Shown: piece after piece, positions 10,457-47,293 of the stretch
Numbering within the stretch: position 1 is the stretch's first letter
Layout: every line of letters begins with the position of its first letter
From: Aquirufa ecclesiirivi
GTDB taxonomy: Bacteria > Bacteroidota > Bacteroidia > Cytophagales > Spirosomataceae
Direction: 5' to 3'
NCBI RefSeq assembly: GCF_011250515.1
Contig: NZ_JAANOP010000003.1
Span: 62,001-126,000 of the forward strand
DNA length: 64,000 nt
Position numbers and translations under genes: made by a program
Notes under the pieces: model-generated
What the model was told of the DNA's origin: nothing
The model's input: the letters and a program-made list of their open reading frames with translations, nothing else
Database searches by the model: none

Positions 10457-10516
10457 GCTAGCTACAAAGAAAAGGAAAGATTCGTGCACTGGCAAACCTG
10501 GATTTAACCTAAAAAA

Positions 10517-11110
10517 CTAAGGTTTCCACTGCAAGGTTTGAATGAGATGCATGGCATCCTTTTTTAAAAATTTAATGACTGGAGCGAGTGAGTCATTTTG
10601 TGTGGCCGTTTTAACATAAACTGCTCCCCTCAAATAATGTTGTACACTGTCTGTCGTATAAAACTGAAAAGAGGTGGCTACTTCTCCATCCAACTCAATG
10701 ATTCCAGCTTTTCTACCCGAACGAGTTGTCATGACATATTCTTGAATTCCTCGGGCCTTCCCTTGGTGTTTGGCAGCCAAAATATAGGCGTCATTAATTA
10801 GATTTGCCAGCTTCTTTTTATCCTTATTTAATGGCTTGTAAGTCAGCTGAATAAAAGCATGCCATTGAGGATAATAAATATACAACCAATGAGGCTCAGC
10901 CCATGAAACCGTATCAGGCATTACTTGGGCATATTGAGAAACTTCAAACGTAAATGGATGACCTTTTTCTACCTGTTGATATGTCGCCTTGGGTAAAATA
11001 ATTCGATTATATCCTTTGGGACGAGGTAAATCAGCCTTCTGTTCGGCTGTTTTATCAGCACAAGCAAGGAAAAACCAGCTTAAAACTAATATGGATATCC
11101 CATGCCGCAT
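10517..11110 (-). CDS. gldD: Gliding motility lipoprotein GldD
   Basis: A 197-aa lipoprotein (MRHGISILVLSWFFLAC, Cys17). After the signal comes the GldD pattern PRPKGYNRIILPKATYQQ, then PFTFEVSQYA and a mid-region HWLYIYYPQWHAFIQLTY, ending in FLKKDAMHLIQTLQWKP. GldD is required for gliding and type IX secretion in Flavobacterium, though its role is unclear. plsC ends 8 bp upstream and priA follows, so pyk-plsC-gldD-priA may be co-transcribed. Confidence 0.85.
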   Translation of the reverse strand: MRHGISILVLSWFFLACADKTAEQKADLPRPKGYNRIILPKATYQQVEKGHPFTFEVSQYAQVMPDTVSWAEPHWLYIYYPQWHAFIQLTYKPLNKDKKKLANLINDAYILAAKHQGKARGIQEYVMTTRSGRKAGIIELDGEVATSFQFYTTDSVQHYLRGAVYVKTATQNDSLAPVIKFLKKDAMHLIQTLQWKP

Positions 11111-11118
11111 AGCCCTTT

Positions 11119-11889
11119 TTATTGAGGTTCGTCTAAAGAATAATATTTCAAAATGGGGTCTTGAATGATGTGGTACAACTTCTCACGTAACATCGGCACA
11201 TCATCTAAGGTTAATCCTTTGGTGATAATTGGAGGATGGATCTCTGCACGAATAACCCCTGGTCTAATCATCAATGGCTTATCAGAGAATATTTGGTAAT
11301 TATTGAATAAACTGATAGGTACCAAAGGAATTTGTTGTTGAATCGCCATAATCAAAGCTCCATCTTTCAAAGGCTTTGCCATGTAGGGGTACTTCTTTGA
11401 CACAATGCCGCCCTCTGGAAATATGGCAATACTTCTTCCTGATTGCAATGCTTTTAGGGCCTTGGATAAAGAACCTGCTCTACTAGCATTATCTGACCGA
11501 TTGACTAAGATATTTAAGCGGGCATACATGTATCCAAATAAGGGTAATTTGCCCAATGAACTTTTTCCAACAAAAGACGTGTAATGCTCTAGCAAATAAA
11601 CGATTACGGGAATGTCTAGAAAGGAGAAATGATTGGCACAAAACACGTAATTCTGTTTTTTATCAGGAACAAAATGGTGTTTTACTTCGAAACGGATAAA
11701 GCTAAAAAAGAAAAAACACTTAGACCATATACGCACCAATTTGGCGGCATATTTCCGATAACTAAGCTTTTGGAGTAAAATAAAGATAAAAGGGTAAAAA
11801 AGCAGAAAAACTACAATGAACCAAAATAAGGACCAAAGAGTAAAAAGACCTAGAAAAGGATTTGAAAGAAATGGGTTCTTTTTATTCAT
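11119..11889 (-). CDS. 1-acyl-sn-glycerol-3-phosphate acyltransferase (PlsC/LPLAT family)
   Basis: 256 aa. An N-terminal hydrophobic stretch (about 15-45) anchors it to the inner membrane. The acyltransferase motifs are NHFSFLD (H87-x4-D92) and FPEGG (157-161), with NRSDNASRAGS between them. It transfers acyl groups to lysophosphatidate in phospholipid synthesis, or to a related lysophospholipid. It sits between pyk (37 bp upstream) and gldD (8 bp downstream) on the same strand. Confidence 0.88.
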   Translation of the reverse strand: MNKKNPFLSNPFLGLFTLWSLFWFIVVFLLFYPFIFILLQKLSYRKYAAKLVRIWSKCFFFFSFIRFEVKHHFVPDKKQNYVFCANHFSFLDIPVIVYLLEHYTSFVGKSSLGKLPLFGYMYARLNILVNRSDNASRAGSLSKALKALQSGRSIAIFPEGGIVSKKYPYMAKPLKDGALIMAIQQQIPLVPISLFNNYQIFSDKPLMIRPGVIRAEIHPPIITKGLTLDDVPMLREKLYHIIQDPILKYYSLDEPQ

Positions 11890-11910
11890 GCTTTACATAC
11901 CCAAAAATAA

Positions 11911-11947
11911 ACAATTAGGGGTTGATTATTCAACCACCCCTAATTGT
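11911..11947 (-). terminator. Hairpin at the 3' end of pyk
   Basis: ACAATTAGGGG and CCCCTAATTGT form an 11-bp stem that spans the pyk stop codon. On the minus strand it is followed by a modest T-rich run (TTTATTTTTGG). It may be a partial terminator that reduces read-through into plsC. Confidence 0.5.
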
Positions 11948-13398
11948 ACTGTATTGGTTTTCTTACCCGAATGGGCAGGAATAGACAAGGTAGTTACAAA
12001 AACATCCCCGGCTGATAATAATTGATCTTGCTTTAATTTGTCCACCATAGCAGCTACTGTCTTTTCTGCACTTTCAGCTGACGGATCATAAAAGAATACT
12101 TTCACTCCCCACAACAAGCCCATGGTAGACATTAACTGCTTATCAGAAGTAAAGACATATAAGTCGGCTTTAGGTCTGTGTGCGGATAAACGAAAAGCCG
12201 TATGACCTGAATTAGTTATACAAAGTATGGCTTTGGCTTTGGAGTCACGAGCTAAACGACATGCTCCTGCAATCAAACGATCCGTTAAGGCTACTTCTTT
12301 TGAACTTTGTGCCAAAGCATGGTTCTTGAAATAAATCGCTACTTCATCTCCTTTAATGACAGAAATGGCATTTTGCTGCTGCTCCACAATCTCATGAATG
12401 TGCGCCATGGTCTCTACAGCTTTGATTGGGTAAGAACCTGAAGCTGATTCACCACTTAACATGGTAGCTGAAGCTCCTTGCAATACCGCATTAGCTACGT
12501 CAGACGTTTCTGCACGTGTAGGAACCGGGTTTTGAATCATCGATTCCAACATTTGAGTTGCCACAATAACAGGTTTTCCTGCTGCGGTACATTTCTCCAC
12601 CATAACTTTTTGCAAGTATGGAACTACTGCTCCATCCATCTCCACACCCAAATCACCACGAGCTACCATGATACCATCAGTAGCTTCAATGATTTCGTCC
12701 AAATGATCTATTGCTTCTGGCTTTTCAATCTTGGCAATTACGCGGGTATTTTTACCGTATGCTTTAATTTTTTCTTTAATATCCCAAATATCAGAAGCCT
12801 TACGAACGAATGATAAAGCTACCCAATCAACTCCGTGATCCAATCCAAAATATAAATCTGCCTCATCTTTTGGTGTTAAACAAGGTAAAGAAACCTTTGT
12901 TCCAGGTAAATTAATCCCCTTTTTAGATTTCAAAATCCCACCATAAATCACTTCAGTTAAGACTTCTTTCTTCTCTTTATCGATGGCAAGTACCTTCACT
13001 TCTAAATTACCATCATCCATCAAAATACGTTCTCCCACATTCACATCCAAATACATAGATGTGTAGGTAGTACCCACTTTCTCTGATGTTCCAAGCAAGT
13101 TTTCATCCATGGCAAAGATGAGCTGTTTGCCCGCTTCTAAAACAACACCATTGTTCTCCACCATCTGAGTCCTAATCTTAGGACCTTGCAAATCTTGAAG
13201 AATACACAAATTCATGCCTAGCTCTTCGCTAATAGAACGAATCGTTTTTAAACGTTCCAAATGATCTTCATGAGTTCCGTGCGAGAAATTCAAACGGAAT
13301 ACATTGACTCCAGCTTGTGCTAATTGAATTAAGGATTCTCTTGATTCAGATACTGGACCTACTGTGGCTACTATTTTTGTCTTGCGTTGATACGACAT
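11926..13398 (-). CDS. pyk: Pyruvate kinase
   Basis: A 490-aa glycolytic enzyme converting PEP + ADP to pyruvate + ATP. Visible motifs are TKIVATVGPVSES at the N-terminus, FRLNFSHG (34-41), IAKIEKPEA with the active-site lysine (around residue 220), and MVARGDLGVE (around 245). The C-terminal allosteric-type domain is complete (ITNSGHTAFRLSAHRPKADLYVFT). Length matches the family. A hairpin covers the stop; plsC follows after 36 bp. Confidence 0.95.
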   Translation of the reverse strand: MSYQRKTKIVATVGPVSESRESLIQLAQAGVNVFRLNFSHGTHEDHLERLKTIRSISEELGMNLCILQDLQGPKIRTQMVENNGVVLEAGKQLIFAMDENLLGTSEKVGTTYTSMYLDVNVGERILMDDGNLEVKVLAIDKEKKEVLTEVIYGGILKSKKGINLPGTKVSLPCLTPKDEADLYFGLDHGVDWVALSFVRKASDIWDIKEKIKAYGKNTRVIAKIEKPEAIDHLDEIIEATDGIMVARGDLGVEMDGAVVPYLQKVMVEKCTAAGKPVIVATQMLESMIQNPVPTRAETSDVANAVLQGASATMLSGESASGSYPIKAVETMAHIHEIVEQQQNAISVIKGDEVAIYFKNHALAQSSKEVALTDRLIAGACRLARDSKAKAILCITNSGHTAFRLSAHRPKADLYVFTSDKQLMSTMGLLWGVKVFFYDPSAESAEKTVAAMVDKLKQDQLLSAGDVFVTTLSIPAHSGKKTNTVQLGVVE

Positions 13399-13496
13399 AT
13401 ATGCTTAATTATTCAATTTACCCTGCAAGTTACAGCTTAGTCATCAAAAAATTGAATAATTATAATAAATCATATCCAAATTTCACTGGAATCTGA

Positions 13497-13760
13497 TTAA
13501 TCTAAAGAATAAACCAATTTATCCGACACAAAAAGTCGCAATTCAAAATCAAACTTGACCGGCAAATTGTATTTATAGCTCTTAATTATTGAGCAAAAGG
13601 TTATGGGTGCTCCCATATCCCGTAATACTTCCATGTAGGTGCCAAGTTGACGGGGCGACATGTGTAAATGTTCTGCAAAGGAAGCCGCAGATCCAGTAGA
13701 TTCCTGTTGAATTAATCGATGAATTCGATGTAAACGTTCGATTTGTTTAAGACATTGCAT
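13497..13760 (-). CDS. Small HTH-domain protein
   Basis: An 87-aa protein with an N-terminal winged-helix type HTH: the segment IERLHRIHRLIQQESTGS followed by FAEHLHMSPRQLGTYMEVLRDMGAPI (about 7-54) resembles HTH_11/DeoR-type domains. The rest (FDFELRLFVSDKLVYSL) is short and lacks the WYL effector domain, so this is a stand-alone DNA-binding unit. It sits between gldN and pyk and is divergent from nothing, so no target is evident. Function unknown. Confidence 0.65.
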   Translation of the reverse strand: MQCLKQIERLHRIHRLIQQESTGSAASFAEHLHMSPRQLGTYMEVLRDMGAPITFCSIIKSYKYNLPVKFDFELRLFVSDKLVYSLD

Positions 13761-13855
13761 GGTTAGAAATTTAATGTCTCAATTTCGAATTTAGATCAAT
13801 ACTAGTGTATAAATAAGCTGATAAATAACCGACATTATCAACCTATTGGACATAA

Positions 13856-13880
13856 AAAAAGGAGACTAAAGCCTCCTTTC
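13856..13880 (-). terminator. Terminator of the porP-gldKLMN cluster
   Basis: Stem AAAGGAG / CTCCTTT (13858-13864 with 13873-13879), followed on the minus strand by a run of seven T. It lies just after the gldN stop codon. Confidence 0.75.
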
Positions 13881-13898
13881 CTTTTGAAAATTTATATA

Positions 13899-14801
13899 TT
13901 AGTTTTCCCACATATCGTGTTCCATTTCCAATAATTTGTATTCCAATTGCTGAGACATCAATAGTCCTTCGCGATCAGAACTATAAATATCCGTTAAGAA
14001 TTTGTTTTCTGGATTTCCCTTTTTGATAATTCTTGCCTGAAACATTCTCAAATCAAAGGCGTCGGCCATATTCTTGTGTTGAGTTTCATTTTCTGCATTG
14101 TACCAAATACAATTGGGGTTACTTCTAAATAACTTATATACATCCTTATATCGGAAAGATGCCACAGGCTTATCAAATCCAGCTTTAGTTTTAGAAGCAG
14201 GAATAATTAATGTAAAAGCCTGAATATCAAAATACAATCTTGAACGCTGGCGATCAATGATGGCATCTTCTTTAATTTCAATAATTGAAAGTTCTTTTGG
14301 GAAAAAATAAGAATCTAAGCTTGCAACTGGTTTTGTGTCAAAATCATCTGCCTTTTTTGCGGCGGCACCAGGCTTTGTAGTTGTTCCCCAACCATCATCT
14401 TCAGCTGCTTTTTTATCACCACCTTCGGCTCCAAATCCGGCGGCTTTCTCTGCTTCGGATAGACTTCCTTCTCCAATGGAATCATCCATACGAAGTTTTT
14501 CCTTAAACTGAGCAGTTGTTAATTTAGTTACTAATGAATCATTCACATAAGGTACTAAAATACCAGCTTCCACCCATTCCACTAAGAATTTAGAAATCTC
14601 GTTGTTAACAGAGAAAAAGGGTTGATTGATTTTCTCATTCAAGTCCATCCTGCGCCATAAACGAGCCTTATAATGAATGTTCGCTGGATCAATGGGGCGC
14701 ACTGAATTCAACTTAGACTCATCTACAGGTTTCTCTTGAGCCATGGCACTAAATCCACAGATCAGAGAAACTAACAATAATAATTGATTAACTGATTTCA
14801 T
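13899..14801 (-). CDS. gldN: Type IX secretion ring protein GldN
   Basis: 300 aa with a signal peptide (MKSVNQLLLLVSLICGFSAMAQ). GldN and the lipoprotein GldK form the periplasmic rings of the T9SS. Family features include the N-terminal VRPIDPANIHYKARLWRRMDL, the VEWVEAGILVPY segment, and the C-terminal EGLLMSQQLEYKLLEMEHDMWEN. A low-complexity Ala/Lys/Asp linker (about 115-160) splits the conserved parts. An upstream in-frame start at 14822 would overlap gldM; the ATG at 14801 is preferred. Last gene of the cluster. Confidence 0.9.
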   Translation of the reverse strand: MKSVNQLLLLVSLICGFSAMAQEKPVDESKLNSVRPIDPANIHYKARLWRRMDLNEKINQPFFSVNNEISKFLVEWVEAGILVPYVNDSLVTKLTTAQFKEKLRMDDSIGEGSLSEAEKAAGFGAEGGDKKAAEDDGWGTTTKPGAAAKKADDFDTKPVASLDSYFFPKELSIIEIKEDAIIDRQRSRLYFDIQAFTLIIPASKTKAGFDKPVASFRYKDVYKLFRSNPNCIWYNAENETQHKNMADAFDLRMFQARIIKKGNPENKFLTDIYSSDREGLLMSQQLEYKLLEMEHDMWEN

Positions 14802-14814
14802 ATACAGGGTTTTC

Positions 14815-16410
14815 CTAATCACTCAAAGGGATATTTTTAACCATCGATACTGGGATGGTCTCAATCGCTCCTTTGAAATTTTTTCTTTGAACTTCTTTCA
14901 CTTCAATGTAATAGCGATCTCCAGGCTGTGCTTGAGAAGCTAATTTAGCAATTGACCCAGAACCTGGTAAATTGGCTATTTCGTCAATTTTTCTTTGACC
15001 ACGCACTAAAGCAACATATACTTGAGCTACACGATAATTGGCATCTTCCGGATTAGTCGCTTTAAATGACTCATCGGCGATGGCTCTAGCGTCTAAGGTT
15101 CTCAAACCTGTAGCACTGGTGCCTCTTTTCTCATTTAATTCACCTCCGTTACCAAAGATGCGAACATCTGGTCTTGGAACACGACGCACTTTAAACGTCT
15201 CTTTTCCTAATAAAGTACCTCCATTATTAACATTTAAGGTAATAGTAGCTGATGATGGCACGATGGTTACCTTACCTCTATTTTGACCAGGAATCACCTC
15301 ACCGCCTTCGGCAGAAAATTGAGGATTCCACAAAGCACCTAAACCAGGACTCACTACACTTAATCGGTTGGCACATCCCAAATATAAAGCTGGTAAAGTG
15401 GCGGTTTCAATATTGTAAGTTGGTTTCAAAACAAAATATTCCTTTTGAATAGATTCTGTTTTTGGACCAGCTGGACTCATATAAGCAACCGTTGCAGTAT
15501 AGGTCTTTTTAGAAAGCCCATTCGCATCATATCCGCCACCTGAAGTTTTAAATTTAATTTGACCACGTCCATCCACCACTGGTATTGAAGCTCCATTAAA
15601 GCTCATACGAGGAGTAAATCCAGATGAAGTAGCTGCAATGAACACTTCAGCTTGGTATTCCATACCCGCTACTACGGTATTTGCATTAGCTGATACCTGA
15701 GCAAAAACTTTATCGAACTTAATCTCTTTAGCTCCTACTTTGGACGCTAATTGACTTAAAACCTCGGTTTCATAGCGTCTAATCTCAGCTTGCTTCTGAC
15801 TTAAAGTAGCCAAGGCAGCTGGAACGGGCGTATGTTCAAAATTCAATTCAGCAAAATCTTTATTGGATTGTGCGGCATCACGACTAGCCACAGGATCATC
15901 TTTAGCAGCTAGTGCCAGAGATGGGAATTTTGTACCTGGATCGGCAATAGTTTGCAATTTAGCCACATATTGATCAAACATGGGAACCAATTGATAGGCC
16001 TCTCCTTTGGAATTAGCACCGACCATCAATTCAAACACCTTCTCTTCTTCTTTGGGGTTTTTAATTGTACCCGTTTCTGGATCAATTCCTCCTCCCGTTT
16101 CAATCACTTTAGATTTTAATCCATCAATGTGATTCACTAATTCATCTGCCAATTTGCGAACTTCATTAGCTTTCTTAAGAATATCAGCATAAGCGGCCGG
16201 ATTAGGAAGATCTTTAATACGCTCTTCAATACCGGCAACCATACTCTTATTCTTAGAACTTGCCGATTGATTTGCAATTTCTAGACTATTGTTTAACAAG
16301 GTGAATTTCTGTAAAAGAGCATCACTTACCTGCAAAGCTAACAGGGCCGTGAGTACCAAATACATCATCCCGATCATTTTCTGCCGGGGGGTCTCTTTTA
16401 AACTTGCCAT
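14815..16410 (-). CDS. gldM: Type IX secretion motor protein GldM
   Basis: 531 aa. The N-terminus KETPRQKMIGMMYLVLTALL is the hallmark: one transmembrane helix (about 11-30) that inserts in the GldL bundle. The large periplasmic part forms the multi-domain rod that contacts the GldKN rings (Ig-like repeats; YFVLKPTYNIETATLPALYLGCANRLSV is conserved). GldLM uses the proton-motive force to power secretion and gliding. gldL ends 34 bp upstream. Confidence 0.95.
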   Translation of the reverse strand: MASLKETPRQKMIGMMYLVLTALLALQVSDALLQKFTLLNNSLEIANQSASSKNKSMVAGIEERIKDLPNPAAYADILKKANEVRKLADELVNHIDGLKSKVIETGGGIDPETGTIKNPKEEEKVFELMVGANSKGEAYQLVPMFDQYVAKLQTIADPGTKFPSLALAAKDDPVASRDAAQSNKDFAELNFEHTPVPAALATLSQKQAEIRRYETEVLSQLASKVGAKEIKFDKVFAQVSANANTVVAGMEYQAEVFIAATSSGFTPRMSFNGASIPVVDGRGQIKFKTSGGGYDANGLSKKTYTATVAYMSPAGPKTESIQKEYFVLKPTYNIETATLPALYLGCANRLSVVSPGLGALWNPQFSAEGGEVIPGQNRGKVTIVPSSATITLNVNNGGTLLGKETFKVRRVPRPDVRIFGNGGELNEKRGTSATGLRTLDARAIADESFKATNPEDANYRVAQVYVALVRGQRKIDEIANLPGSGSIAKLASQAQPGDRYYIEVKEVQRKNFKGAIETIPVSMVKNIPLSD

Positions 16411-39177: not shown

Positions 39178-40374
39178 TTGAATCCACAAATCGCCCAATT
39201 ATACCAGATTGCTCAAAAACCTAGTCGATTGATTCTAGGCTTAATGTCGGGTACCTCCTTGGATGGTTTAGACCTGGCTCTTTGTCGGTTTAGTGGATTT
39301 GGCTTACAGACACAAGTAGAATTAGTCAAACACCATACCATCCCCTATCCTGAGGAATTCAAACAATCTATTCGGGAAGTATTTGCTAAGGATCAGATTC
39401 ATTTCCCTAGCTTATCTACATTAAATGCACAAATTGGACGGTTACATGCTCAATTTATTCTAGACAGCTTGCAAAGCTGGGGAATTGCGCCAAAAGAAGT
39501 TGATGCCATTGCCTCGCATGGTCAAACGGTAATGCATCGTCCGATGCGTTCTGGAAATTTGCCCAACTCAACCTTGCAGATTGGCGATGCTGATCATATA
39601 GCGCATTTGACAGGCATTATTACCTTATCCGATTTCCGCCAAAAGCATATAGCAGGTGGTGGCGAAGGAGCCCCATTGGCAGTGTATGGTGATTATTTTT
39701 TATTCTCAAAAAAAGAGGAACATCGTATCTTACTAAACATTGGCGGGATAGGAAACTTTACGTATTTGTCGGCCAGTCAAGACCCCAAAGATATTTTAGT
39801 TACCGATACCGGACCAGGAAATACTTTATTAGATGCATTCGTGCGCCAACATTTCCCAGGTTTTCATTATGATAAAGATGCACGGCTAGCTCGACAAGGA
39901 ATTTTGCATATACCATTATTAGACTCCTTATTAAATTTACCTTTTTTCAATGAGGCTTTTCCTAAAAGTACGGGGCCCGAATATTTCAATCTAGAACTAT
40001 TGAACCAAGTTATCCATAAAAATGGGTATTCGTTAACGCCAGTAGATACCTTGAGAACCCTGACAGAATTAACCGCTCAAAGTATCTCTAATGCCATGCA
40101 AAATTATATTCCAGCGATTCAAACGATACATTGCAACTTGATTGTGAGTGGTGGTGGTGGCAAAAATCCCTTATTAATGGAGCGATTAAGCAAAATTAAT
40201 CCCAAGTTGAAAGTCGTCGAATCAGACCAGTTGGGTATAGCCTCTGAAGCTAAGGAAGCTGTGCTTTTTGCCTTGTTGGCCAACGAGACATTGATGGATG
40301 ACCAAGTGGCTTCGAATAGACGATTGGGGGATTCCCCTTGGTTAAGTTTAGGAAAAATTAGCCTACCGAACTAA
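39178..40374 (+). CDS. anmK: Anhydro-N-acetylmuramic acid kinase
   Basis: 398 aa. The ASKHA-type phosphate loop GLMSGTSLDGLDLAL is at 21-35. ASHGQTVMHRP, LQIGDADHIAHLTG, HIAGGGEGAPLAVYGD, NIGGIGNFTYL and DTGPGNTLLDAFV follow in the family order. It phosphorylates anhydroMurNAc during peptidoglycan recycling. An in-frame stop lies just before codon 1 and the first in-frame ATG is Met23 inside the phosphate loop, so a TTG start (39178) is required. The RluA-type gene follows 8 bp later. Confidence 0.92.
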   Translation: MNPQIAQLYQIAQKPSRLILGLMSGTSLDGLDLALCRFSGFGLQTQVELVKHHTIPYPEEFKQSIREVFAKDQIHFPSLSTLNAQIGRLHAQFILDSLQSWGIAPKEVDAIASHGQTVMHRPMRSGNLPNSTLQIGDADHIAHLTGIITLSDFRQKHIAGGGEGAPLAVYGDYFLFSKKEEHRILLNIGGIGNFTYLSASQDPKDILVTDTGPGNTLLDAFVRQHFPGFHYDKDARLARQGILHIPLLDSLLNLPFFNEAFPKSTGPEYFNLELLNQVIHKNGYSLTPVDTLRTLTELTAQSISNAMQNYIPAIQTIHCNLIVSGGGGKNPLLMERLSKINPKLKVVESDQLGIASEAKEAVLFALLANETLMDDQVASNRRLGDSPWLSLGKISLPN

Positions 40375-40382
40375 ATTTGTCT

Positions 40383-41099
40383 ATGAAATGGAAATTAGAG
40401 GACGCTATCCTTTTCGAAAACAGCGATTTTTTTGTCATCAATAAACCTTCTGGAATCTCCACACTAGACGAGCGAAAAGACGTGTTTGCTCCGAATATTT
40501 TACGATTGGCCAAGGCTTATTCAGATGATGCACAGGTAGGTCATCGCCTAGATAAAGAGACCTCGGGTGCTTTGGTGATAGCCAAAAATCCAGAGGCGTA
40601 TCGACATATTTCCATGCAATTTGAGCATCGAGAAACAGCCAAGCGCTACCATGCGGTGGTGGAAGGTATGCACGATTGGGATGGGATGTTGGTCAATCTA
40701 CCCATTCTACCCTTAAAAGATGGCATTGTGGTTATCGATCGCGCGAAAGGAAAACATGCTGAAACCTGGTTTCAAACGCTGAAAGTTTACAAAAACTATA
40801 CCTTAGTCGAGTGCATGCCCATCACCGGACGAATGCACCAGATTCGTATACATTTGGCATGCTTAAAGGCTCCCATAGTAGCGGATGCCATGTATGGAGG
40901 CAAGGATATTTATTTATCGGAATTAAAGAAGAAGTTTCATCTCAAACAAGATACAGAGGAGTTGCCCTTGATTCGTCGAGTGGCATTACATGCACATAGC
41001 TTGAGTTTCAATTTGTTGGATGGTAGCCCTATCACGGTCGAGGCTCCCTACCCGAAAGATTTCGGAGTGCTTGTCAAACAGTTGGAGAAGTTTTCGTAA
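40383..41099 (+). CDS. RluA-family pseudouridine synthase
   Basis: 238 aa. NSDFFVINKPSGIST (13-27) and the catalytic motif VGHRLDKETSGALVIAK (52-68, Asp57) are the RluA family core; GRMHQIRIHLA (about 148-158) and the C-terminal ALHAHSLSFNL are also typical. It isomerises uridines in rRNA or tRNA; the target site is unknown. No S4 domain is present. It lies directly upstream of the tRNA-Arg gene and 8 bp after anmK. Confidence 0.9.
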   Translation: MKWKLEDAILFENSDFFVINKPSGISTLDERKDVFAPNILRLAKAYSDDAQVGHRLDKETSGALVIAKNPEAYRHISMQFEHRETAKRYHAVVEGMHDWDGMLVNLPILPLKDGIVVIDRAKGKHAETWFQTLKVYKNYTLVECMPITGRMHQIRIHLACLKAPIVADAMYGGKDIYLSELKKKFHLKQDTEELPLIRRVALHAHSLSFNLLDGSPITVEAPYPKDFGVLVKQLEKFS

Positions 41100-41111
41100 T
41101 TTTGATTCCTT

Positions 41112-41183
41112 GGCTCCGTAGTTCAATGGATAGAATGTAGGTTTCCGGTACCTAATATGAAGGTTCGATTCCTTCCGGGGTCA
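41112..41183 (+). tRNA. tRNA-Arg (anticodon CCG)
   Basis: Full cloverleaf: acceptor GGCTCCG/CGGGGTC (one G-U and one U-G pair), D-stem GTTC/GAAT, anticodon stem TAGGT/ACCTA with loop TTCCGGT (anticodon CCG), T-stem GAAGG/CCTTC with loop TTCGATT, discriminator A. The 3' CCA is not encoded. Degenerate copies of its 3' half follow downstream, marking it as a likely integration target. Confidence 0.92.
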
Positions 41184-41208
41184 CAAAATGATGAATCAGT
41201 CAAATATG

Positions 41209-41238
41209 AGGACATTTCGACAAGAGATGTCCTTTTTT
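41209..41238 (+). terminator. Terminator after tRNA-Arg
   Basis: AGGACAT and ATGTCCT stem with an 11-nt loop, followed by TTTTTTAT. It is placed 26 bp after the tRNA. Confidence 0.75.
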
Positions 41239-41258
41239 ATTTGGGTTGAAAATGGAAC

Positions 41259-41281
41259 TTGTGCAGCAGATTTGTGTAGCA
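41259..41281. repeat. Paired TTGTGYAGCA motif, copy 1
   Basis: TTGTGCAGCA (41259-41268) and TTGTGTAGCA (41272-41281) are direct repeats with 13-bp spacing. The same pair recurs at 41475-41497 and 41694-41716. Confidence 0.8.
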
Positions 41282-41362
41282 AAATCAAATATGTAGAGAT
41301 TTGATAAACATAAAAATTAGTCAAATCCAAGAGACACAGGTTAGGAAGTAATTAATCTATTC

Positions 41363-41423
41363 TTGGTTTCCAGTACCTAATATGAGGCCGGGGTCGTGTT
41401 CGACTCGATTCCTTCCGGGGTCA
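41363..41423 (+). repeat. Degenerate tRNA-Arg 3' half, copy A
   Basis: It starts in the anticodon region (GGTTTCCAGTACC, versus GGTTTCCGGTACC in the gene) and ends CCTTCCGGGGTCAC like the tRNA. An extra segment (GCCGGGGTCGTGTTCGACTC) interrupts the T-arm. No 5' acceptor half is present, so it is not a functional tRNA. Confidence 0.8.
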
Positions 41424-41432
41424 CACATTAAA

Positions 41433-41470
41433 TAGAGAGAGTTTTTCACTAAAACTCTCTCTATTTTTTT
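41433..41470 (+). terminator. Hairpin terminator of unit A
   Basis: TAGAGAGAGTTTT / AAAACTCTCTCTA stem followed by seven T. The same structure recurs 219 bp later. Confidence 0.75.
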
Positions 41471-41474
41471 AAAC

Positions 41475-41497
41475 TTGTGCAGCAGATTTGTGTAGCA
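41475..41497. repeat. Paired TTGTGYAGCA motif, copy 2
   Basis: TTGTGCAGCA and TTGTGTAGCA with the same 13-bp spacing as copy 1, directly after the unit A terminator. Confidence 0.8.
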
Positions 41498-41581
41498 GAA
41501 CATTCAAAAAACATCAAATTGCTGAACCAAAAAATCCAAATATGGTCTTTAAATCAAATAAACACCCATTGGGGCATCATG

Positions 41582-41642
41582 TAAGTTTACGTTACATAAT
41601 ATGAGGCCGGGGTCGCGTTCGACTCGATTCCTTCCGGGGTCA
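41582..41642 (+). repeat. Degenerate tRNA-Arg 3' half, copy B
   Basis: Exactly 219 bp after copy A. The T-arm insertion and the tRNA 3' end are identical in form (GTCGCGTTCGAC instead of GTCGTGTTCGAC). The anticodon-stem part has drifted but can still pair (TGTAA/TTACA). The 5' half is missing. Confidence 0.8.
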
Positions 41643-41651
41643 CACATTAAA

Positions 41652-41689
41652 TAGAGAGGGTTTTTCAATGAAACTCTCTCTATTTTTTT
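41652..41689 (+). terminator. Hairpin terminator of unit B
   Basis: TAGAGAGGGTTT / AAACTCTCTCTA stem plus T-run. Relative to unit A, one A-to-G change keeps pairing as G-U. Confidence 0.75.
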
Positions 41690-41693
41690 AAAC

Positions 41694-41716
41694 TTGTGCA
41701 GCAGATTTGTGCAGCA
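41694..41716. repeat. Paired TTGTGYAGCA motif, copy 3
   Basis: TTGTGCAGCA twice with 13-bp spacing, in the same place relative to the unit B hairpin. Confidence 0.8.
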
Positions 41717-41855
41717 AAACATTCAAAAACCATCCAATTGCTCCACAAAAAGAACTGAATACATGATAAGACATTCTATGGTGAATAAATTCACTTCATT
41801 CAAATTACAAGAAGTCTATTTATTTAATTTCCAACACGAATAATTTGAAAAGATA

Positions 41856-42779
41856 TTAGCGGATTACACTATTCAATTTCCAAAGTGCACCTTGTTTTGT
41901 AGTTAATTTTTCTAGTTTTCCCATAGATACCAAATCGTCTAAATATTTTTCACATTCGCTTCTTGGTGTTCCTGTCAGTTCAGAATATTCTCTTGCTGTC
42001 AGTGAACAATACTGTGAAAAGATTGAACTCCACGCCTTCTCATAATTAGTTTTGTTAGCATTTGGATACAATTTAAGCAAAGCATTCTCAAAAGTGTTAT
42101 AAGGTTTCGAACCATAAACCATTTCTCTATTTCCTGTGATATCAGTAAAAAACATTGTTGGAAACCCTCTTACACTTAACTCTCTTCCTAATTTTAAATC
42201 TTCTTCAAATAGCTCTTTTGCATTTCCTTCGTAATCAACTTCAAATTTAATAACATCAAGTCCAACTTTTTTTCCTGCTAATTCTAAATGTTCCCATTTT
42301 GTAATGTTCATTTTTTGAAGAAAAACCATTTCTCGTATTTCTCGAAGAAATAAAATTGCCTTTTCATTGTCTTGCATTTGGGCTGCTTTGAAAGCAATTG
42401 AAGGGGGATAAGAAGAAGCTAATGGATCTTCTAACCAAACATCCCCGTCAATCGGCATATCATAATAAGCACTTACTTCGTCCCAATGATGTGCTACATC
42501 CGAAGGTTTGCTAATACCACCACTATTATAACTCCAATTAGGTAATAGACCACCCATTCTGTAGTCAATTTCAAAATTGTTTCCGTATTCCATTTTGAGT
42601 TTTCGTAGTTGTGGTTCAATGCCCCAACAAGAAGAACAAATCGGATCGGTGTAATAAATTATTTTTACAGGTTTTTTCTTAGCAAAAACAGAATAGCCTT
42701 CTGTTGAATTTGATGAAATAGTTGGTATTTCGCAAATACCTGTTTCAGGGTTACACATTAATGGGTTGTTACTTTCCAT
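41856..42779 (-). CDS. DsbA/FrnE-like thiol oxidoreductase with C-terminal helical domain
   Basis: About 307 aa from the ATG at 42779. The thioredoxin-fold active site is YTDPICSSCWGIEP (Cys48, Cys51), and the cis-Pro region is RGFPTMFF. The family includes FrnE and the SpxH/YjbH adaptors. An extra Cys pair (CNPETGIC, 9-16) precedes it. The last 45 residues (SLTAREYSELTGTPRSECEK ... ALWKLN) look like a small winged-helix. No signal peptide, so probably cytoplasmic. It is divergent from an HxlR regulator inside the tRNA-flanked segment, suggesting a thiol-stress role. Confidence 0.8.
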   Translation of the reverse strand: MESNNPLMCNPETGICEIPTISSNSTEGYSVFAKKKPVKIIYYTDPICSSCWGIEPQLRKLKMEYGNNFEIDYRMGGLLPNWSYNSGGISKPSDVAHHWDEVSAYYDMPIDGDVWLEDPLASSYPPSIAFKAAQMQDNEKAILFLREIREMVFLQKMNITKWEHLELAGKKVGLDVIKFEVDYEGNAKELFEEDLKLGRELSVRGFPTMFFTDITGNREMVYGSKPYNTFENALLKLYPNANKTNYEKAWSSIFSQYCSLTAREYSELTGTPRSECEKYLDDLVSMGKLEKLTTKQGALWKLNSVIR

Positions 42780-43086
42780 TTTCTTTTTTGTTTGAGCTTG
42801 GAAATCCAAGTGACCAAGCATTATTTATATTTCCACTATTATTAGCTTTCAATTTTAAAATACCTTACAAAACAGGCAGTGTGGTGTAATCTTACATCCT
42901 AGAAATCAACGCATTTTTAACCTTATATACATGCACAGATTTTTTGAAGTTTTAAATTGAAGCTAATCCTACAAAACTACTGGACATATAATGTATTTTT
43001 GATATTAATTTCCTAATGGAAAGTGGTTTCCTATTGGATACTAACTGTCGGATCCGTATTTTTCAAAACGTACATTTGTGAAGTCC
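42780..43086. promoter_or_regulatory. Divergent regulatory spacer of the dsbA-like/hxlR pair
   Basis: No gene. It holds a tandem repeat TTTCCTAATGGAAA (43009-43022, itself an inverted repeat) and TTTCCTATTGGATA (43027-43040), 18 bp apart, resembling a dimer operator. TACATTTG at 43071-43078 matches the -7 box only 8 bp before the hxlR ATG. Confidence 0.5.
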
Positions 43087-43449
43087 ATGAAAAAAAATGC
43101 AGAAATAAATGCAACACCTGTTTGTCAAGTAAGAATGCAAGCAATTAGTGATGCCATGAGTCTATTGTCGGGTAAATGGAAGTTCCATATTTTGGGAACA
43201 CTCATTGCAGGCAATAAATTAGGATTTATGGATTTGTTAAGAGAAATAGATGGAATTGGGAGTAAAATGCTTTCAAAAGAACTTCAAGATTTGGAAATGA
43301 ACAATTTGGTTAGTCGAACCGTAATGGACACAAAGCCAATAACCGTTGAATATTCAATTACAAAATATGGCAAAACACTTTCCGCAGTGATTGATGAACT
43401 GGCTAATTGGGGAATAGAATATCGTAAAGCACTGTATAAAAAAAATTAA
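43087..43449 (+). CDS. HxlR-family winged-helix regulator
   Basis: About 120 aa. The HxlR core is SLLSGKWKFHILGTLIAG, FMDLLREIDGIGSKMLSKELQDLEMNNLVSR and VEYSITKYGKTLSAVIDELANWG. The N-terminal cysteine (Cys13, in TPVCQVR) sits where redox-sensing members such as YodB and HypR carry their reactive thiol. The ATG at 43087 is chosen over an in-frame GTG 9 bp upstream that lies within the -7 box. It likely controls the divergent DsbA-like gene. Confidence 0.88.
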   Translation: MKKNAEINATPVCQVRMQAISDAMSLLSGKWKFHILGTLIAGNKLGFMDLLREIDGIGSKMLSKELQDLEMNNLVSRTVMDTKPITVEYSITKYGKTLSAVIDELANWGIEYRKALYKKN

Positions 43450-43478
43450 AAGGCAACTTCATTCATTTTGCGTGAAGT

Positions 43479-43652
43479 TCAACCTTTCAATTTCCTGATA
43501 GTTACATACTCAATCATAGAATTATTGCTGTATCTTTTGTCTGTAAGGGAGGTATAAATTAAATAGAGGTCAACAACTTCCTCCAATTTACACGAAGTTT
43601 GAGGCATCCTAATTTGTAAAACCTTTGACCAGTAAATATTAAAATACCCCAT
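43479..43652 (-). CDS. Possible small protein or gene remnant, 57 aa
   Basis: An open frame of 57 codons (MGYFNIYWSKV ... EYVTIRKLKG) on the minus strand, starting 13 bp before tRNA-fragment copy C. The frame remains open a few codons further upstream, then hits a stop. Composition is protein-like, but I recognise no family. It could be the 3' remnant of a gene cut by recombination at copy C. Confidence 0.3.
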   Translation of the reverse strand: MGYFNIYWSKVLQIRMPQTSCKLEEVVDLYLIYTSLTDKRYSNNSMIEYVTIRKLKG

Positions 43653-43664
43653 CGGGTCATAATT

Positions 43665-43712
43665 TAGCTTTCAGGAACCTAATATGAGGCCGGGGTCGCG
43701 TTCGACTCGATT
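43665..43712 (+). repeat. Degenerate tRNA-Arg fragment, copy C (truncated)
   Basis: The 36 bases 43677-43712 match copies A and B (ACCTAATATGAGG, then CCGGGGTCGCGTTCGACTC, then GATT), and then similarity stops before the tRNA 3' end. It lies about 2.5 kb beyond the tRNA gene and could be the distal boundary of an inserted segment. Confidence 0.75.
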
Positions 43713-44069
43713 TAGTATATTATTATCAACCATATTCCATTGATAATCAGATTGATTGAAAATAGTTAAAGACATTAAGTGGAGTATTCTGATTGTCAGT
43801 AAATGGATGCCCATAGCATTAGTTTGCTAGCACCAAACTTATATAGCTTAGATTTTGCTCAATCGTTACGAGAAACCTTTAAAATTATATATTCGTTTTA
43901 GAATAGGGTATAATAAATGTATAGAAATACCTACCCAAAAGTATGTTCAGGGGCGACAAATTACAAGATTTTATAATCCCAAGGAATATGATATTCAGGC
44001 TGTTTATTCTTGAGAATGCATTCTAGAATTAAATATATTTTTAATTATTGTCTAAGACACTTAATTATA
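43713..44069. other. Low-coding AT-rich stretch
   Basis: No intact gene is recognised. A 53-codon open stretch on the plus strand (43852-44013, containing YVQGRQITRFYNPKEYDIQ before its stop) looks protein-like but lacks a start and any family match. It may be a gene remnant. Confidence 0.35.
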
Positions 44070-44222
44070 CTAAGAGGTCAATGTTTGATCCGTATTAAGT
44101 AAAAAATGTAGAGGATTCAAAGCTAGCATTTCTTCCGTATTCCAAGATTCTAATTGGGGACTTTCCCACTCTTTACGATTTGGTTGTTGTGAGTTATCTT
44201 TCAATGATTCAGTATCTTTCAT
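44070..44222 (-). CDS. Short peptide 1 of a two-member paralogous family (50 aa)
   Basis: 50 aa starting MKDTESLKDN and ending TDQTLTS. The core has Trp19-x-x-Pro22-x-Leu24-x-x-Trp27, then ALNPL (34-38) and FLLN (40-43). Over 27 ungapped positions 15 residues equal those of the peptide at 44379-44594, while most shared residues use different synonymous codons, so translation is probably real. W-x-x-P-x-L resembles the leader motif of lasso-type precursors (YxxPxL), but no maturation enzyme is nearby. Function unknown. Confidence 0.6.
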   Translation of the reverse strand: MKDTESLKDNSQQPNRKEWESPQLESWNTEEMLALNPLHFLLNTDQTLTS

Positions 44223-44378
44223 TCGATAAAAATTTAAGGTTAAAGGAAAGATTAAATTTAAAAAACAAAATCAGAATATCAATGATTTCCTGTAGGGAAA
44301 TTATTGAACAAATCCTCCTTGTCATAATTATTTTGCATTCAACCGATCACTCTAATTTTCAGGCTTTGCCAATTTTAT

Positions 44379-44594
44379 TCAATTTTTATTAATCGATTTA
44401 AATCTAGTGCATATTAACCATTCCAAGGAGCTAGGTTTAAGAGTTTCTTTAATCAAGTTCAATAAAAATTTAAGGGGATTTAATGCTATGGATTCTACCA
44501 CCTCCCAATGAGTCAAGCTTGGGTTGCACCATGTCTTACTAGTTTGAAAATCTTTAGCTTTAGCTTTAGCTTTAGCTTCCGAATGATCTTTCAT
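44379..44594 (-). CDS. Short peptide 2 of the same family (71 aa)
   Basis: 71 aa starting MKDHSE. An alternating Lys-Ala stretch (7-14), encoded by four TTTAGC repeats on the plus strand, precedes the conserved core Trp22-x-x-Pro25-x-Leu27-x-x-Trp30 ... ALNPL (37-41) and FLLN (43-46). The C-terminal tail (LIKETLKPSSLEWLICTRF) is absent in the paralogue. Both genes start ATGAAAGAT and lie on the minus strand 156 bp apart. No family assignment. Confidence 0.55.
   Translation of the reverse strand: MKDHSEAKAKAKAKDFQTSKTWCNPSLTHWEVVESIALNPLKFLLNLIKETLKPSSLEWLICTRFKSINKN
44553..44576. repeat. TTTAGC hexanucleotide repeat, four copies
   Basis: It lies within the 71-aa peptide gene and encodes Lys-Ala dipeptides on the minus strand. 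The unit is in frame, so copy-number change would only lengthen the stretch. Confidence 0.85.
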
Positions 44595-44767
44595 GCTTAG
44601 TTTAAATTTTAGTAAACTAAATATAAACTAAGAATTGGTAAATTAAAGTAGATTAAATGCTGAAATTTTCAAAGCATTGGGCACAACTTATTCCACATTA
44701 AAGTTTCAAAATGAAACTTAATTCATTAGAAAATAGATCGATACAAAGGCTATTTAAGACAAACTTC

Positions 44768-45436
44768 TTAATTCAAATTCAAACCAATCGCAATTCCCCA
44801 ATAAGGCTTTTGTTGATAAATCCATTTTGAGGCATTTTCATCCATCAACTGATCAAATCCATAGGCTATTCCTAAGGTAAAATTATTGATGGCAATAATG
44901 CCAGCTAGGCCTTTGGAAAAAACAATACCTTGGTAATCATATGTAATCTGTGATTGACTTACTCCTTGATGAATCGCAGTACTTCCAAAACCCAAAAAAG
45001 CCCCATAAGAAAGCCCAAAATGATCAATTTCCCTTTTGAATAAACTCCTAGGGGTTTTATTGTATCGAATGTAGAATCGATCACTACGCTTGCCAAAATA
45101 CACAGATGCGTTGATCTCCGTATTCATCTGGGTAGGTATACCATTCACTGAACCATGTATTTTGACGGGTATAGCCAATAAATCTAAATCAAACGTTCCC
45201 TTTCGTAAAATCAAATTACCCGTACTTTGAGACATAACTGGTGGAAGCGTTTTTTCTACATTGACGACATCCGTACTCTTCGAAATCAGATGCAAAGTAT
45301 CCTCGGTAACCTCAACTAAAACTTTAGTATGATTCAATTGATAAACACCATCAACCAAATCATATTTAGGGGTATTTTTAATGATGCTACAACTTCCCAA
45401 AAGTATAATGAGGCTGAAATAAACGAGAATCCGCAT
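44768..45436 (-). CDS. Putative lipoprotein, 222 aa
   Basis: MRILVYFSLIILLGSC is a lipoprotein signal (Cys16). The body is rich in beta-strand-like segments with a late barrel- or sandwich-like half (FYIRYNKTP, GLSYGAFLGFGST, FTLGIAYGFDQL, YWGIAIGLNLN). I do not recognise a family. It is divergent from the CorA gene with a 61-bp spacer. Confidence 0.7.
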   Translation of the reverse strand: MRILVYFSLIILLGSCSIIKNTPKYDLVDGVYQLNHTKVLVEVTEDTLHLISKSTDVVNVEKTLPPVMSQSTGNLILRKGTFDLDLLAIPVKIHGSVNGIPTQMNTEINASVYFGKRSDRFYIRYNKTPRSLFKREIDHFGLSYGAFLGFGSTAIHQGVSQSQITYDYQGIVFSKGLAGIIAINNFTLGIAYGFDQLMDENASKWIYQQKPYWGIAIGLNLN

Positions 45437-45497
45437 ATTTGATTAGTTTTGATATGTAAGTTATCAAATAGATATAAATACAAAATTAAATATATTT

Positions 45498-46400
45498 ATG
45501 CCAACGCAATACTTTGAAAATAAAAGCAATCAAATGCTTTGGATTGATGTAACAAACCCAAGCAAATTAGAGCTAGAAGAGCTTAGTAATCGTTTTTCAT
45601 TGAACAAATATGCTCTTTCTGATTGCCTTCAACCTGACCATTTGCCCAAACATGAAGACATGTATGGAACCCATTTTATCATTACTCGAGTACAAACCGA
45701 CCTTTTATCAAACCAACCTGCTTCCATTCAGTCCATGTCCACCAAAATAGCATTTTTCTATAGGCCTGGATTATTAATTAGTGTCCACCGATTGCCACAT
45801 TCATTTATTGATATCATTCGTGAGAAATATTTTGATCAGGGAATATTTGAACAAGTTGAATCCATCGTAGCTAAAATGTTATGGCATATTTTGCATTCGT
45901 ATGAAGCTCTGGCGGTTAATCTCTCCAATGAAATGGATGATTTTGAAAGTAAGGTCTTTTCTCAAAATCTTAGCCCTAAAATGCTATCCGAGCTATATCA
46001 AATAAAACGTAAAGCGCTCATAAGCAAAAAACTATTATTGTTTAGTCAAGAAGCAATTAGCTCTGTAAAATTACCTGAAAACCAAGGCGATATAATCCAA
46101 GATGCGCGCGACTTACATCAGAAACTACTTCATATTTATGACCAAATACACGAAGATGTTTCCAACCTTGTTAGTTTCTATCTATCCATTTCAGCCCAAA
46201 AAACCAATGAAGTCATTAAAGTCTTGACCATATTTTCCGTCTTTTTTATGCCTTTAACTTTTTTGGTAGGAATCTACGGAATGAATTTTGACTATATGCC
46301 CGAATTACGAATATCTTGGGCCTATCCAAGCTTGCTGCTCATCATGTGCCTAATTAGTGCTCTAATTTTTGTCTGGTTTCGAAGAAAAAAGTGGCTCTAA
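45498..46400 (+). CDS. CorA-family divalent metal transporter
   Basis: 300 aa. The cytoplasmic funnel domain (1-230) precedes two C-terminal transmembrane helices (about 238-257 and 272-292) separated by the signature loop GIYGMNFDYMPEL, whose GMN tripeptide is the ion filter. It moves Mg2+ (or Co2+, Ni2+) across the inner membrane as a pentamer. The terminal RRKKWL matches family ends. Full length. Confidence 0.9.
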   Translation: MPTQYFENKSNQMLWIDVTNPSKLELEELSNRFSLNKYALSDCLQPDHLPKHEDMYGTHFIITRVQTDLLSNQPASIQSMSTKIAFFYRPGLLISVHRLPHSFIDIIREKYFDQGIFEQVESIVAKMLWHILHSYEALAVNLSNEMDDFESKVFSQNLSPKMLSELYQIKRKALISKKLLLFSQEAISSVKLPENQGDIIQDARDLHQKLLHIYDQIHEDVSNLVSFYLSISAQKTNEVIKVLTIFSVFFMPLTFLVGIYGMNFDYMPELRISWAYPSLLLIMCLISALIFVWFRRKKWL

Positions 46401-46606
46401 TTTAATACCTTATTAGCTTATCGTCATGTACATTCGAATTACAAAGTAGCAATGATATACTGAAAATATATCCACAAGCTTGTCAAAAATACCATTGAGC
46501 AAGTGATCTATATCATATTCATTTTACTAACATGGTAAAATTCCGAACCTATGCAATATTTGAACGCTACTGAATATATGAAATAGCCGTTTAATCATTA
46601 ATTGGA

Positions 46607-47293
46607 CTATTCCCATTTCATTAAGACACGTTCTATTTCTGTTTTAACTCGTAGCAAATCCTGCTCATTCAAGTTAAAATCGTGATCCACATCCACAAAG
46701 GATAATTGAATCTGGGGTGATAAAGTATACTGATTGACCATATCCTTTCCTCCATAAGGGTCTCTCTCTCCCTGAAAAATCATCATCGGCTTTTCTAACC
46801 TCGCTAAATGAGCTGTACGAAATGCAGCATCACCCTCTTCTGGACTCCTAAAGGGATATCCTAAACAAATAATATAGTCGACTGGCATGTGATTCGCTAT
46901 ACTACTAATTACAATAGAACCAGCTGATCTGGCCAACACAACCAAATGTATGGTTTGTTTCGACTTCCTCTGAATATACCTAGATACCACTCGTGTGCGA
47001 AATTCTAGACTTGAAATACGATTTAAAACAAATAAAAGGAAGTCGAACAGCTGCCTTTGTACCAACACAACATAAACAGCCCGCAAAAAAGGAAGAAGCA
47101 GATGCTTTCCTAAAAACTTACCTGGACCTATTTTTCTCATAAAAAGAAAACGGATACGGTCCATGGGATCAAACCTGATTTCAAATCCACTTAATTGCAA
47201 ATTGCCTAAAACCTCTTGATATAAAGAACTATCTCGATCGAGCGCTTCTCTACCTAAAACCAACAGGATTTTATTTTTACCTTTTAAACTCAT
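46607..47293 (-). CDS. Alpha/beta-hydrolase-like protein (KANL3/Tex30 type)
   Basis: 228 aa. The nucleophile elbow is VVLARSAGSIV (Ser123). IICLGYPFRSPEEG and KPMMIFQGERDPYGG follow, with the acidic residue, and FVDVDHDF carries the likely catalytic His. The order matches the small KANL3/Tex30-type hydrolases. It starts 20 bp after the oxyR stop on the same strand, so it is probably co-transcribed with oxyR. Substrate unknown. Confidence 0.75.
   Translation of the reverse strand: MSLKGKNKILLVLGREALDRDSSLYQEVLGNLQLSGFEIRFDPMDRIRFLFMRKIGPGKFLGKHLLLPFLRAVYVVLVQRQLFDFLLFVLNRISSLEFRTRVVSRYIQRKSKQTIHLVVLARSAGSIVISSIANHMPVDYIICLGYPFRSPEEGDAAFRTAHLARLEKPMMIFQGERDPYGGKDMVNQYTLSPQIQLSFVDVDHDFNLNEQDLLRVKTEIERVLMKWE

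What the first reader, a model, noticed from the sequence alone, without database searches (positions are those of the whole stretch)
44070..44594. Two paralogous short peptides with a W-x-x-P-x-L-x-x-W ... ALNPL-x-FLLN core
Two minus-strand ORFs of 50 and 71 codons begin ATGAAAGAT and share 15 of 27 ungapped core positions. At least nine of the shared residues use different synonymous codons (Pro CCC/CCA and CCT/CCC, Leu TTA/TTG, Ala GCT/GCA, Asn AAT/AAC and others). That pattern is expected under selection on the protein, not from recent DNA duplication. W-x-x-P-x-L resembles leader motifs read by RRE domains in lasso-type peptides. They could be RiPP precursors or another small-protein family, next to a tRNA-flanked segment.
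Basis: partly seen in the sequence, partly recalled or inferred. Interest (0 to 1): 0.75.

Follow-up and report, generated by a model that had tools for sequence, protein, structure and literature searches.

The report
Stranded lasso-type peptide precursor genes
Two small genes in a freshwater bacterium are displaced copies of the precursor genes of a lasso-type modified-peptide pathway whose enzymes lie elsewhere in the genome; one copy is still intact, the other is frame-shifted, and a dead piece of the pathway's peptidase gene lies beside them.

Summary
In detail: two minus-strand ORFs share 15 of 27 core residues, 9 with different codons, far above chance. The RiPP lead is right too. On another contig the same genome carries an intact lasso-type cluster (PqqD-type RRE, B2 peptidase, Asn-synthetase-like cyclase, sulfotransferase, APS kinase, SET protein, ABC transporter, precursor array). 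It holds one precursor of the same unusual LNPL type, 53% identical to peptide A. In Aquirufa beregesia the cluster has two LNPL precursors, and a syntenic copy of the window pair lies away from it. In the window the pair sits beside a B2 pseudogene with two stops. So this is a stranded fragment of a lasso-type cluster. Peptide A is intact in both species and diverges less than nearby non-coding DNA (p 0.012-0.035 by choice of blocks), but its 7 differences are all nonsynonymous. Peptide B is frame-shifted: its last 27 residues are not part of the family. The pair lies in a segment recently exchanged between species. Maturation of A in trans is possible but unproven; decay is about equally likely.

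The parts
44070..44222 (-). Peptide A (50 aa): intact stranded LNPL-type precursor gene
   Evidence: 53% identical to the precursor in the own-genome cluster on C33, 90% to A. beregesia C52, 73% to the A. beregesia cluster copy
44379..44594 (-). Peptide B (71-aa ORF): second LNPL-type precursor, frame-shifted after residue 44
   Evidence: profile A1 match E 5.7e-23 over model positions 1-44; 1-nt deletion against A. beregesia C52; 27 residues after the shift
43759..44010 (+). Pseudogene of the lasso B2 peptidase (last 84 codons, two TAG stops); the listed ORF 43855-44013 is its open tail
   Evidence: E 2.0e-20, 51% identity to residues 58-141 of the C33 B2 protein; 59.5% to the A. beregesia cluster B2
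43930..46780 (.). Segment exchanged with (or shared by recent transfer with) A. beregesia: B2 remnant, A, B, lipoprotein gene, CorA gene, part of a hydrolase gene; edges approximate
   Evidence: DNA divergence mostly under 13% inside and 17-55% outside; dS 0.18-0.28 against 0.8-1.1 for three other genes

Best explanation
The pair and the B2 pseudogene are a stranded piece of a lasso-type RiPP cluster. SHOWN: homologous precursors lie in intact clusters in the same genome (contig C33) and in A. beregesia; no other cluster gene is detectable in the window; the B2 copy is dead; B is frame-shifted; the segment was recently exchanged between two Aquirufa lineages. INFERRED mechanism: peptide A keeps the leader (W-x-x-P-x-L-x-x-W) that the PqqD-type B1 protein of the C33 cluster would bind; B2 would cut off the leader, the Asn-synthetase-like cyclase would close a ring, and the HprK-like protein could modify the C-terminal Ser. 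A could thus still be matured in trans; B as it stands here probably cannot give its original product. The stated confidence is for origin and family. Continued use of A in trans I put at about 0.4, plain decay at about 0.45.
For: Peptide A finds the C33 precursor at E 6.3e-13 in its own genome. That precursor lies between B2 and SET genes of a cluster with PqqD, B2 (NCBIfam lasso_biosyn_B2 38.9 bits, cut-off 33) and cyclase genes. The A. beregesia cluster has two such precursors in the same place. B2 pseudogene beside A. Leader profiles of LNPL and main-type precursors match (hhalign probability 83.8, E 7.9e-6 over 17 columns), and the main-type profile finds A. beregesia A at E 9.4e-4. For some function of A: open in both species, 7/150 differences against 10.3-11.7% in non-coding blocks; dN 0.146 and dS 0.677 against the A. 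beregesia cluster copy.
Against: All 7 changes between A and its orthologue are nonsynonymous. B is frame-shifted. The main-type profile does not reach A or B of the window at E 0.001. The precursor order differs from the A. beregesia cluster (T2 next to B2 there, A next to B2 here). One non-coding block, between CorA and lipoprotein, has 0/61 differences, so local rates vary. Cyclase and PqqD score under their NCBIfam cut-offs (226 of 525 and 39 of 80 bits).
Confidence: 0.88

Rival explanations
1. Same origin, but the whole segment is relic DNA: A, B and the B2 piece drift to loss, and A is open only because too little time has passed since the exchange.
For: B2 remnant with two stops, and dN 0.14 against dS 0.13 between the two remnants over 32 codons; B frame-shifted; 7 nonsynonymous and 0 synonymous changes in A.
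Against: A is the least diverged non-neighbour block (4.7%; non-coding blocks next to it 10.7-12.8%), p 0.012 to 0.035 by choice of blocks. A has no stop in either species while the adjoining B2 copy has two.
Confidence: 0.45
2. A is in use: a precursor matured in trans by the C33 enzymes, like scattered prochlorosin precursors.
For: Leader kept, C-terminal Ser kept, cluster enzymes present in both genomes that hold A; slower divergence than flanks.
Against: No purifying pattern in A since the exchange; no Bacteroidota-type promoter pattern found upstream; no expression data.
Confidence: 0.4
3. An independent small-protein family without link to RiPP biosynthesis.
For: 0 of 7 members match any Pfam or NCBIfam family.
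Against: Homologues lie between SET and B2 genes in two lasso-type clusters. Clear members occur only in genomes that also hold such a cluster (2 of 38 in the genus; close cyclase in 3 of 38). Leader profile match.
Confidence: 0.02

Closest known systems
Phosphorylated lasso peptide clusters (paeninodin, pseudomycoidin, BsfA type)
   Same: Split B1/B2, Asn-synthetase-like cyclase, ABC transporter, HprK-like kinase and nucleotidyltransferase; leader motif YxxPxL, here W-x-x-P-x-L; C-terminal Ser as kinase target; a putative sulfotransferase gene was already noted at some Firmicutes lasso clusters (PMC8498205 and PMC10368454, passages only).
   Different: LNPL precursors have no Gly at the predicted core start; the cluster adds an APS kinase, a SET-domain protein and a long precursor array; the window pair lies outside the cluster, with a dead B2 copy; kinase assignment here is weak (TIGR04352, E 0.0011, far under its cut-off).
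Prochlorosins (ProcM/ProcA)
   Same: One enzyme set serving many precursors, some as single genes scattered over the genome (PMC10783134, passages only).
   Different: Lanthipeptides, not lasso-type. In-trans maturation has no test here, and only this one pair is stranded in the genomes examined.

Membership tests
Lasso-type RiPP precursor | Leader with aromatic-x-x-P-x-[LIV] motif | tested here: met
   W, P and L of the motif invariant in 7 of 7 rows
Lasso-type RiPP precursor | Genes for PqqD-type B1, transglutaminase-like B2 and Asn-synthetase-like cyclase in the same locus | tested here: not met
   Not for the window pair itself: only a B2 pseudogene is there. Met by the family members on C33 and A. 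beregesia C10
Lasso-type RiPP precursor | Core starting with Gly (or Ala, Ser, Cys; recalled) and Asp/Glu at 7-9 | tested here: not met
   By the published -17 spacing the start is an invariant Asn; position +8 is D or E in 3 of 7 rows and N in 4 of 7 (A, A. beregesia A, T1, frame-shifted B); Asp at +10 in 5 of 7
Lasso-type RiPP precursor | Thr (or Ile/Val) at the penultimate leader position | tested here: not met
   With the start at Asn the residue is A, T, E or N; the true cut site is unknown
Lasso-type RiPP precursor | Threaded lariat product | not testable with these tools
   Needs mass spectrometry or NMR
Lasso cluster on C33 | B2 peptidase family | tested here: met
   NF033537 38.9 bits (cut-off 33); PF13471 53.6 bits (cut-off 26)
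Lasso cluster on C33 | PqqD-family RRE | tested here: met
   PF05402 43.4 bits (cut-off 23.4); lasso-specific NF033536 39.1 bits under its cut-off 80; best PDB matches are lasso B1 proteins
Lasso cluster on C33 | Lasso cyclase | tested here: inconclusive
   Best NCBIfam model is the lasso cyclase NF033535, but 226 bits against a cut-off of 525; PDB hits are a hydroxyamidotransferase and Asn synthetases

The most novel reading that the evidence does not exclude
LNPL peptides are a second substrate class of one lasso-type machine, with a non-Gly (Asn) start and a C-terminal Ser for the HprK-like kinase, beside a main class with a conserved Tyr for the sulfotransferase and APS kinase; stranded copies are matured in trans and pass between species as small genes without a cluster.
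Probability: 0.2. Interest if true: 0.65.

Novelty: new variant of a known kind. Interest (0 to 1): 0.42.

Why it matters
It shows that lasso-type precursor genes can leave their cluster and move between species with ordinary genes, where cluster-based mining would miss them. It also points to a precursor type without any library match, and to a lasso-type cluster that carries its own APS kinase and sulfotransferase, so that sulfated and phosphorylated products of one system become testable.

Tried and rejected
Pfam and NCBIfam scans of the 7 LNPL peptides: no family; 22 main-type precursors in NCBIfam: chance-level hits only. PDB with profile A1: 3 hits at E 1.4-1.5, taken as chance. Plasmid and phage records with window 43450-44770: no match. 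Genome contigs: 92 pattern stretches, 2 relatives, both A. beregesia.

Genus search with peptide A: 7 of 38 genomes match at E 0.5 or better. Two are clear (window genome, A. beregesia). The other five are weak (E 0.04-0.42); one is a main-type precursor in G021, and four lie antisense to long ORFs, so I dropped them. Order sample (390 genomes): 4 match at E 0.01; besides the two, G021 hits are main-type precursors, and G104 (E 0.005, two stops) I treat as chance without following it up. Family (222 genomes): the same 2. Phylum sample (395 genomes): only the window genome.

In neighbourhoods fetched from 9 other Aquirufa with CorA (four also with the lipoprotein), precursor and B2 queries gave one chance-level hit (E 0.089). 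A Bacteroidota promoter pattern (recalled) was absent in 7 of 7 upstream stretches. Rfam over 40000-47000: only the tRNA reached its threshold. I considered that the partial tRNA-Arg copies are attachment scars of an element that brought the segment in; I did not look for an integrase, so this stays open. No structure was predicted.

Full report
OBSERVATION. The two ORFs exist as described: 15 of 27 core positions identical, 9 of the 15 with different codons. The similarity is real (score 83; best of 20,000 shuffles 59).

WHAT THEY ARE. Searching the window's own genome with peptide A gave 7 matches at E 10: A, B, a 53% identical ORF on contig C33 (E 6.3e-13), and four weaker ones nearby on C33 (E 0.05-0.39). 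C33:55000-74900 (L008) holds an intact lasso-type cluster: NTP_transf_5 nucleotidyltransferase, ABC transporter, HprK-like protein, sulfotransferase (PF00685), PqqD (PF05402), B2 peptidase (PF13471; NCBIfam lasso_biosyn_B2 above cut-off), the LNPL-type precursor, a SET-domain protein, an Asn-synthetase-like cyclase (best NCBIfam model the lasso cyclase NF033535, 226 bits, under its cut-off of 525), a long array of precursors of the type W.SPE...W...G.G.DGG...Y, and an APS kinase. The HprK label is weak (TIGR04352, E 0.0011) and rests mainly on gene order and on the paeninodin precedent. The array gives 16 profile matches in this genome, two of them with a stop. The PqqD protein's PDB matches by sequence are three lasso B1 proteins (E 1.6e-5, 1.3e-4, 0.47); the cyclase's are a hydroxyamidotransferase and Asn synthetases.

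RELATIVES. Of 38 genomes of the genus, 2 have clear LNPL-type precursors, the window genome and G025 (weak hits in 5 more were examined and dropped). Of 222 in the family, the same 2; of 395 sampled from the phylum, only the window genome. G025 contigs C10 and C52 have the lengths of Aquirufa beregesia 50C-KIRBA records NZ_SEWW01000001 and NZ_SEWW01000007, so the window comes from an Aquirufa species (Cytophagales; freshwater habitat recalled). In A. beregesia, C10 holds the cluster with two adjacent LNPL precursors, T1 and T2, between SET and B2, and two further precursors (T3, T4) that join a similar leader and an LNL segment to a core with G and D. C52 holds a second pair, syntenic with the window: CorA, lipoprotein, B, A. 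A third species, G021, has the cluster without LNPL types. On a 12-row tree the 7 LNPL peptides form a clade (98/99), with warnings about long branches.

A STRANDED FRAGMENT. Beside A, window 43759-44010 (+) encodes the last 84 codons of B2 with two TAG stops; the His of GHAW and the Asp of FCDP are gone (that they are catalytic is recalled). By protein identity it is closer to the A. beregesia cluster B2 (59.5%) than to the own-genome one (51.8%) or G021's (47.6%); synonymous distances are saturated and do not support this order (2.16, 1.24, 1.15). A. beregesia C52 retains a shorter B2 remnant. tblastn with eight other cluster proteins found 7 of 8 absent from the window and from L018; the eighth hit an ordinary ABC transporter at 36%. 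The gene order is not a simple copy of the A. beregesia cluster: there T2 is next to B2, here A is.

EXCHANGE. The window genome and A. beregesia differ at dS 0.80, 1.15 and 1.08 in hydrolase, AraC and enoyl-CoA hydratase genes, but 0.28 and 0.18 in CorA and the lipoprotein gene. Low divergence runs from about 43930 to 46780. So CorA, lipoprotein, B, A and the B2 remnant were exchanged between the two lineages, or came from a common donor, long after they split. The cluster itself is a mosaic: SET, B2, PqqD, sulfotransferase and HprK-like proteins of the window genome are 78-90% identical to G021's and 58-73% to A. beregesia's, while its cyclase is 53% to both.

SELECTION. A against A. beregesia A: 0 synonymous and 7 nonsynonymous differences. 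Divergence of A is 7/150. Four neighbouring non-coding or pseudogene blocks give 54/462 (p 0.012); adding the CorA-lipoprotein gap, which has 0/61, gives p 0.035; adding all non-coding blocks of the segment gives 88/805 and p 0.017. B before the frameshift has 8/127. The B2 remnants differ at dN 0.14 and dS 0.13 over 32 codons. A against T1 gives dN 0.146 and dS 0.677, a constrained path that may lie mostly before the stranding. The picture is mixed: slower than nearby non-coding DNA, but without a purifying pattern at the protein level since the exchange. In B a 1-nt deletion relative to A. beregesia moves the frame after ...NPLKFL, leaving 27 foreign residues, and a 12-nt length difference lies near its start. 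A sequencing error cannot be excluded.

MECHANISM (inferred). The leader W-x-x-P-x-L-x-x-W fits the YxxPxL motif that was tested for processing of BsfA (PMC10368454, passages); hhalign links LNPL and main-type leaders. By the published -17 spacing the core would begin at the invariant Asn, giving NPLHFLLNTDQTLTS for A. Position +8 is D or E in the own-genome cluster copy, T2 and A. beregesia B, but Asn in A, A. beregesia A and T1; an Asp at +10 is present in 5 of 7 rows, missing in the two B copies. Ring size and cut site are unresolved. Five of the six LNPL peptides that are not frame-shifted end in Ser, the residue that HprK-like lasso kinases modify (PMC8498205, passages). In 22 main-type precursors, chosen by eye (later gave 40 profile matches), a Tyr near the C-terminus is conserved in at least 90%, a possible sulfotransferase target. 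Both assignments are guesses. Against a clean split, several G021 precursors lack the Tyr, and the own-genome LNPL copy ends in Tyr.

COMPARISON. It works like a lasso-type system and most resembles phosphorylated-lasso clusters. Membership of the peptides in the lasso class is not proven: the canonical core start and penultimate residue were tested and not met. Scattered precursors served by one machine are known for prochlorosins (PMC10783134, passages). Sulfotransferase genes at some Firmicutes lasso clusters were already noted (PMC8498205, passages). Library searches: Aquirufa with lasso, 0 papers; lasso peptide with sulfotransferase and further terms, 3 and 4 papers, of which I saw listings, and passages of PMC8498205; some searches were seen as listings, apart from the papers cited.

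VERDICT. A true small find, largely explained: a stranded, partly decayed precursor module of a lasso-type cluster. The intact cluster on C33 is the more interesting object.

Noticed in passing
L008 4316-18907 (own genome, C33:55000-74900): Intact lasso-type cluster with 16 array-type precursor matches (two with a stop), sulfotransferase, APS kinase, SET-domain protein, HprK-like protein and nucleotidyltransferase; next to a tRNA-Arg(ACG) at L008 4135-4209.
   Followed up: partly
window 41112-43712: tRNA-Arg(CCG) followed by partial copies of its 3' part near 41.4, 41.6 and 43.7 kb, possibly scars of integrated elements; the ORFs at 41357-41503 and 41549-41722 are spurious readings of this repeat.
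   Followed up: partly
L056 (G025 C30) 9544-15638, L055 (G021 C21): A second, distant cyclase (27-28% identical) in A. beregesia and G021; in A. beregesia it lies with a nucleotidyltransferase-like, a PqqD-like, an HprK-like and a B2-like ORF (labels by eye).
   Followed up: no
L041 1199-1273 (G007), L043 2388-2462 (G035): In 2 of 4 other Aquirufa with the CorA-lipoprotein pair a tRNA-Asn lies about 230 nt downstream of the lipoprotein gene, where the window has B and A.
   Followed up: no
L008, L017, L054: The cluster is a mosaic among three Aquirufa species: cyclase and tailoring genes show different closest relatives.
   Followed up: partly
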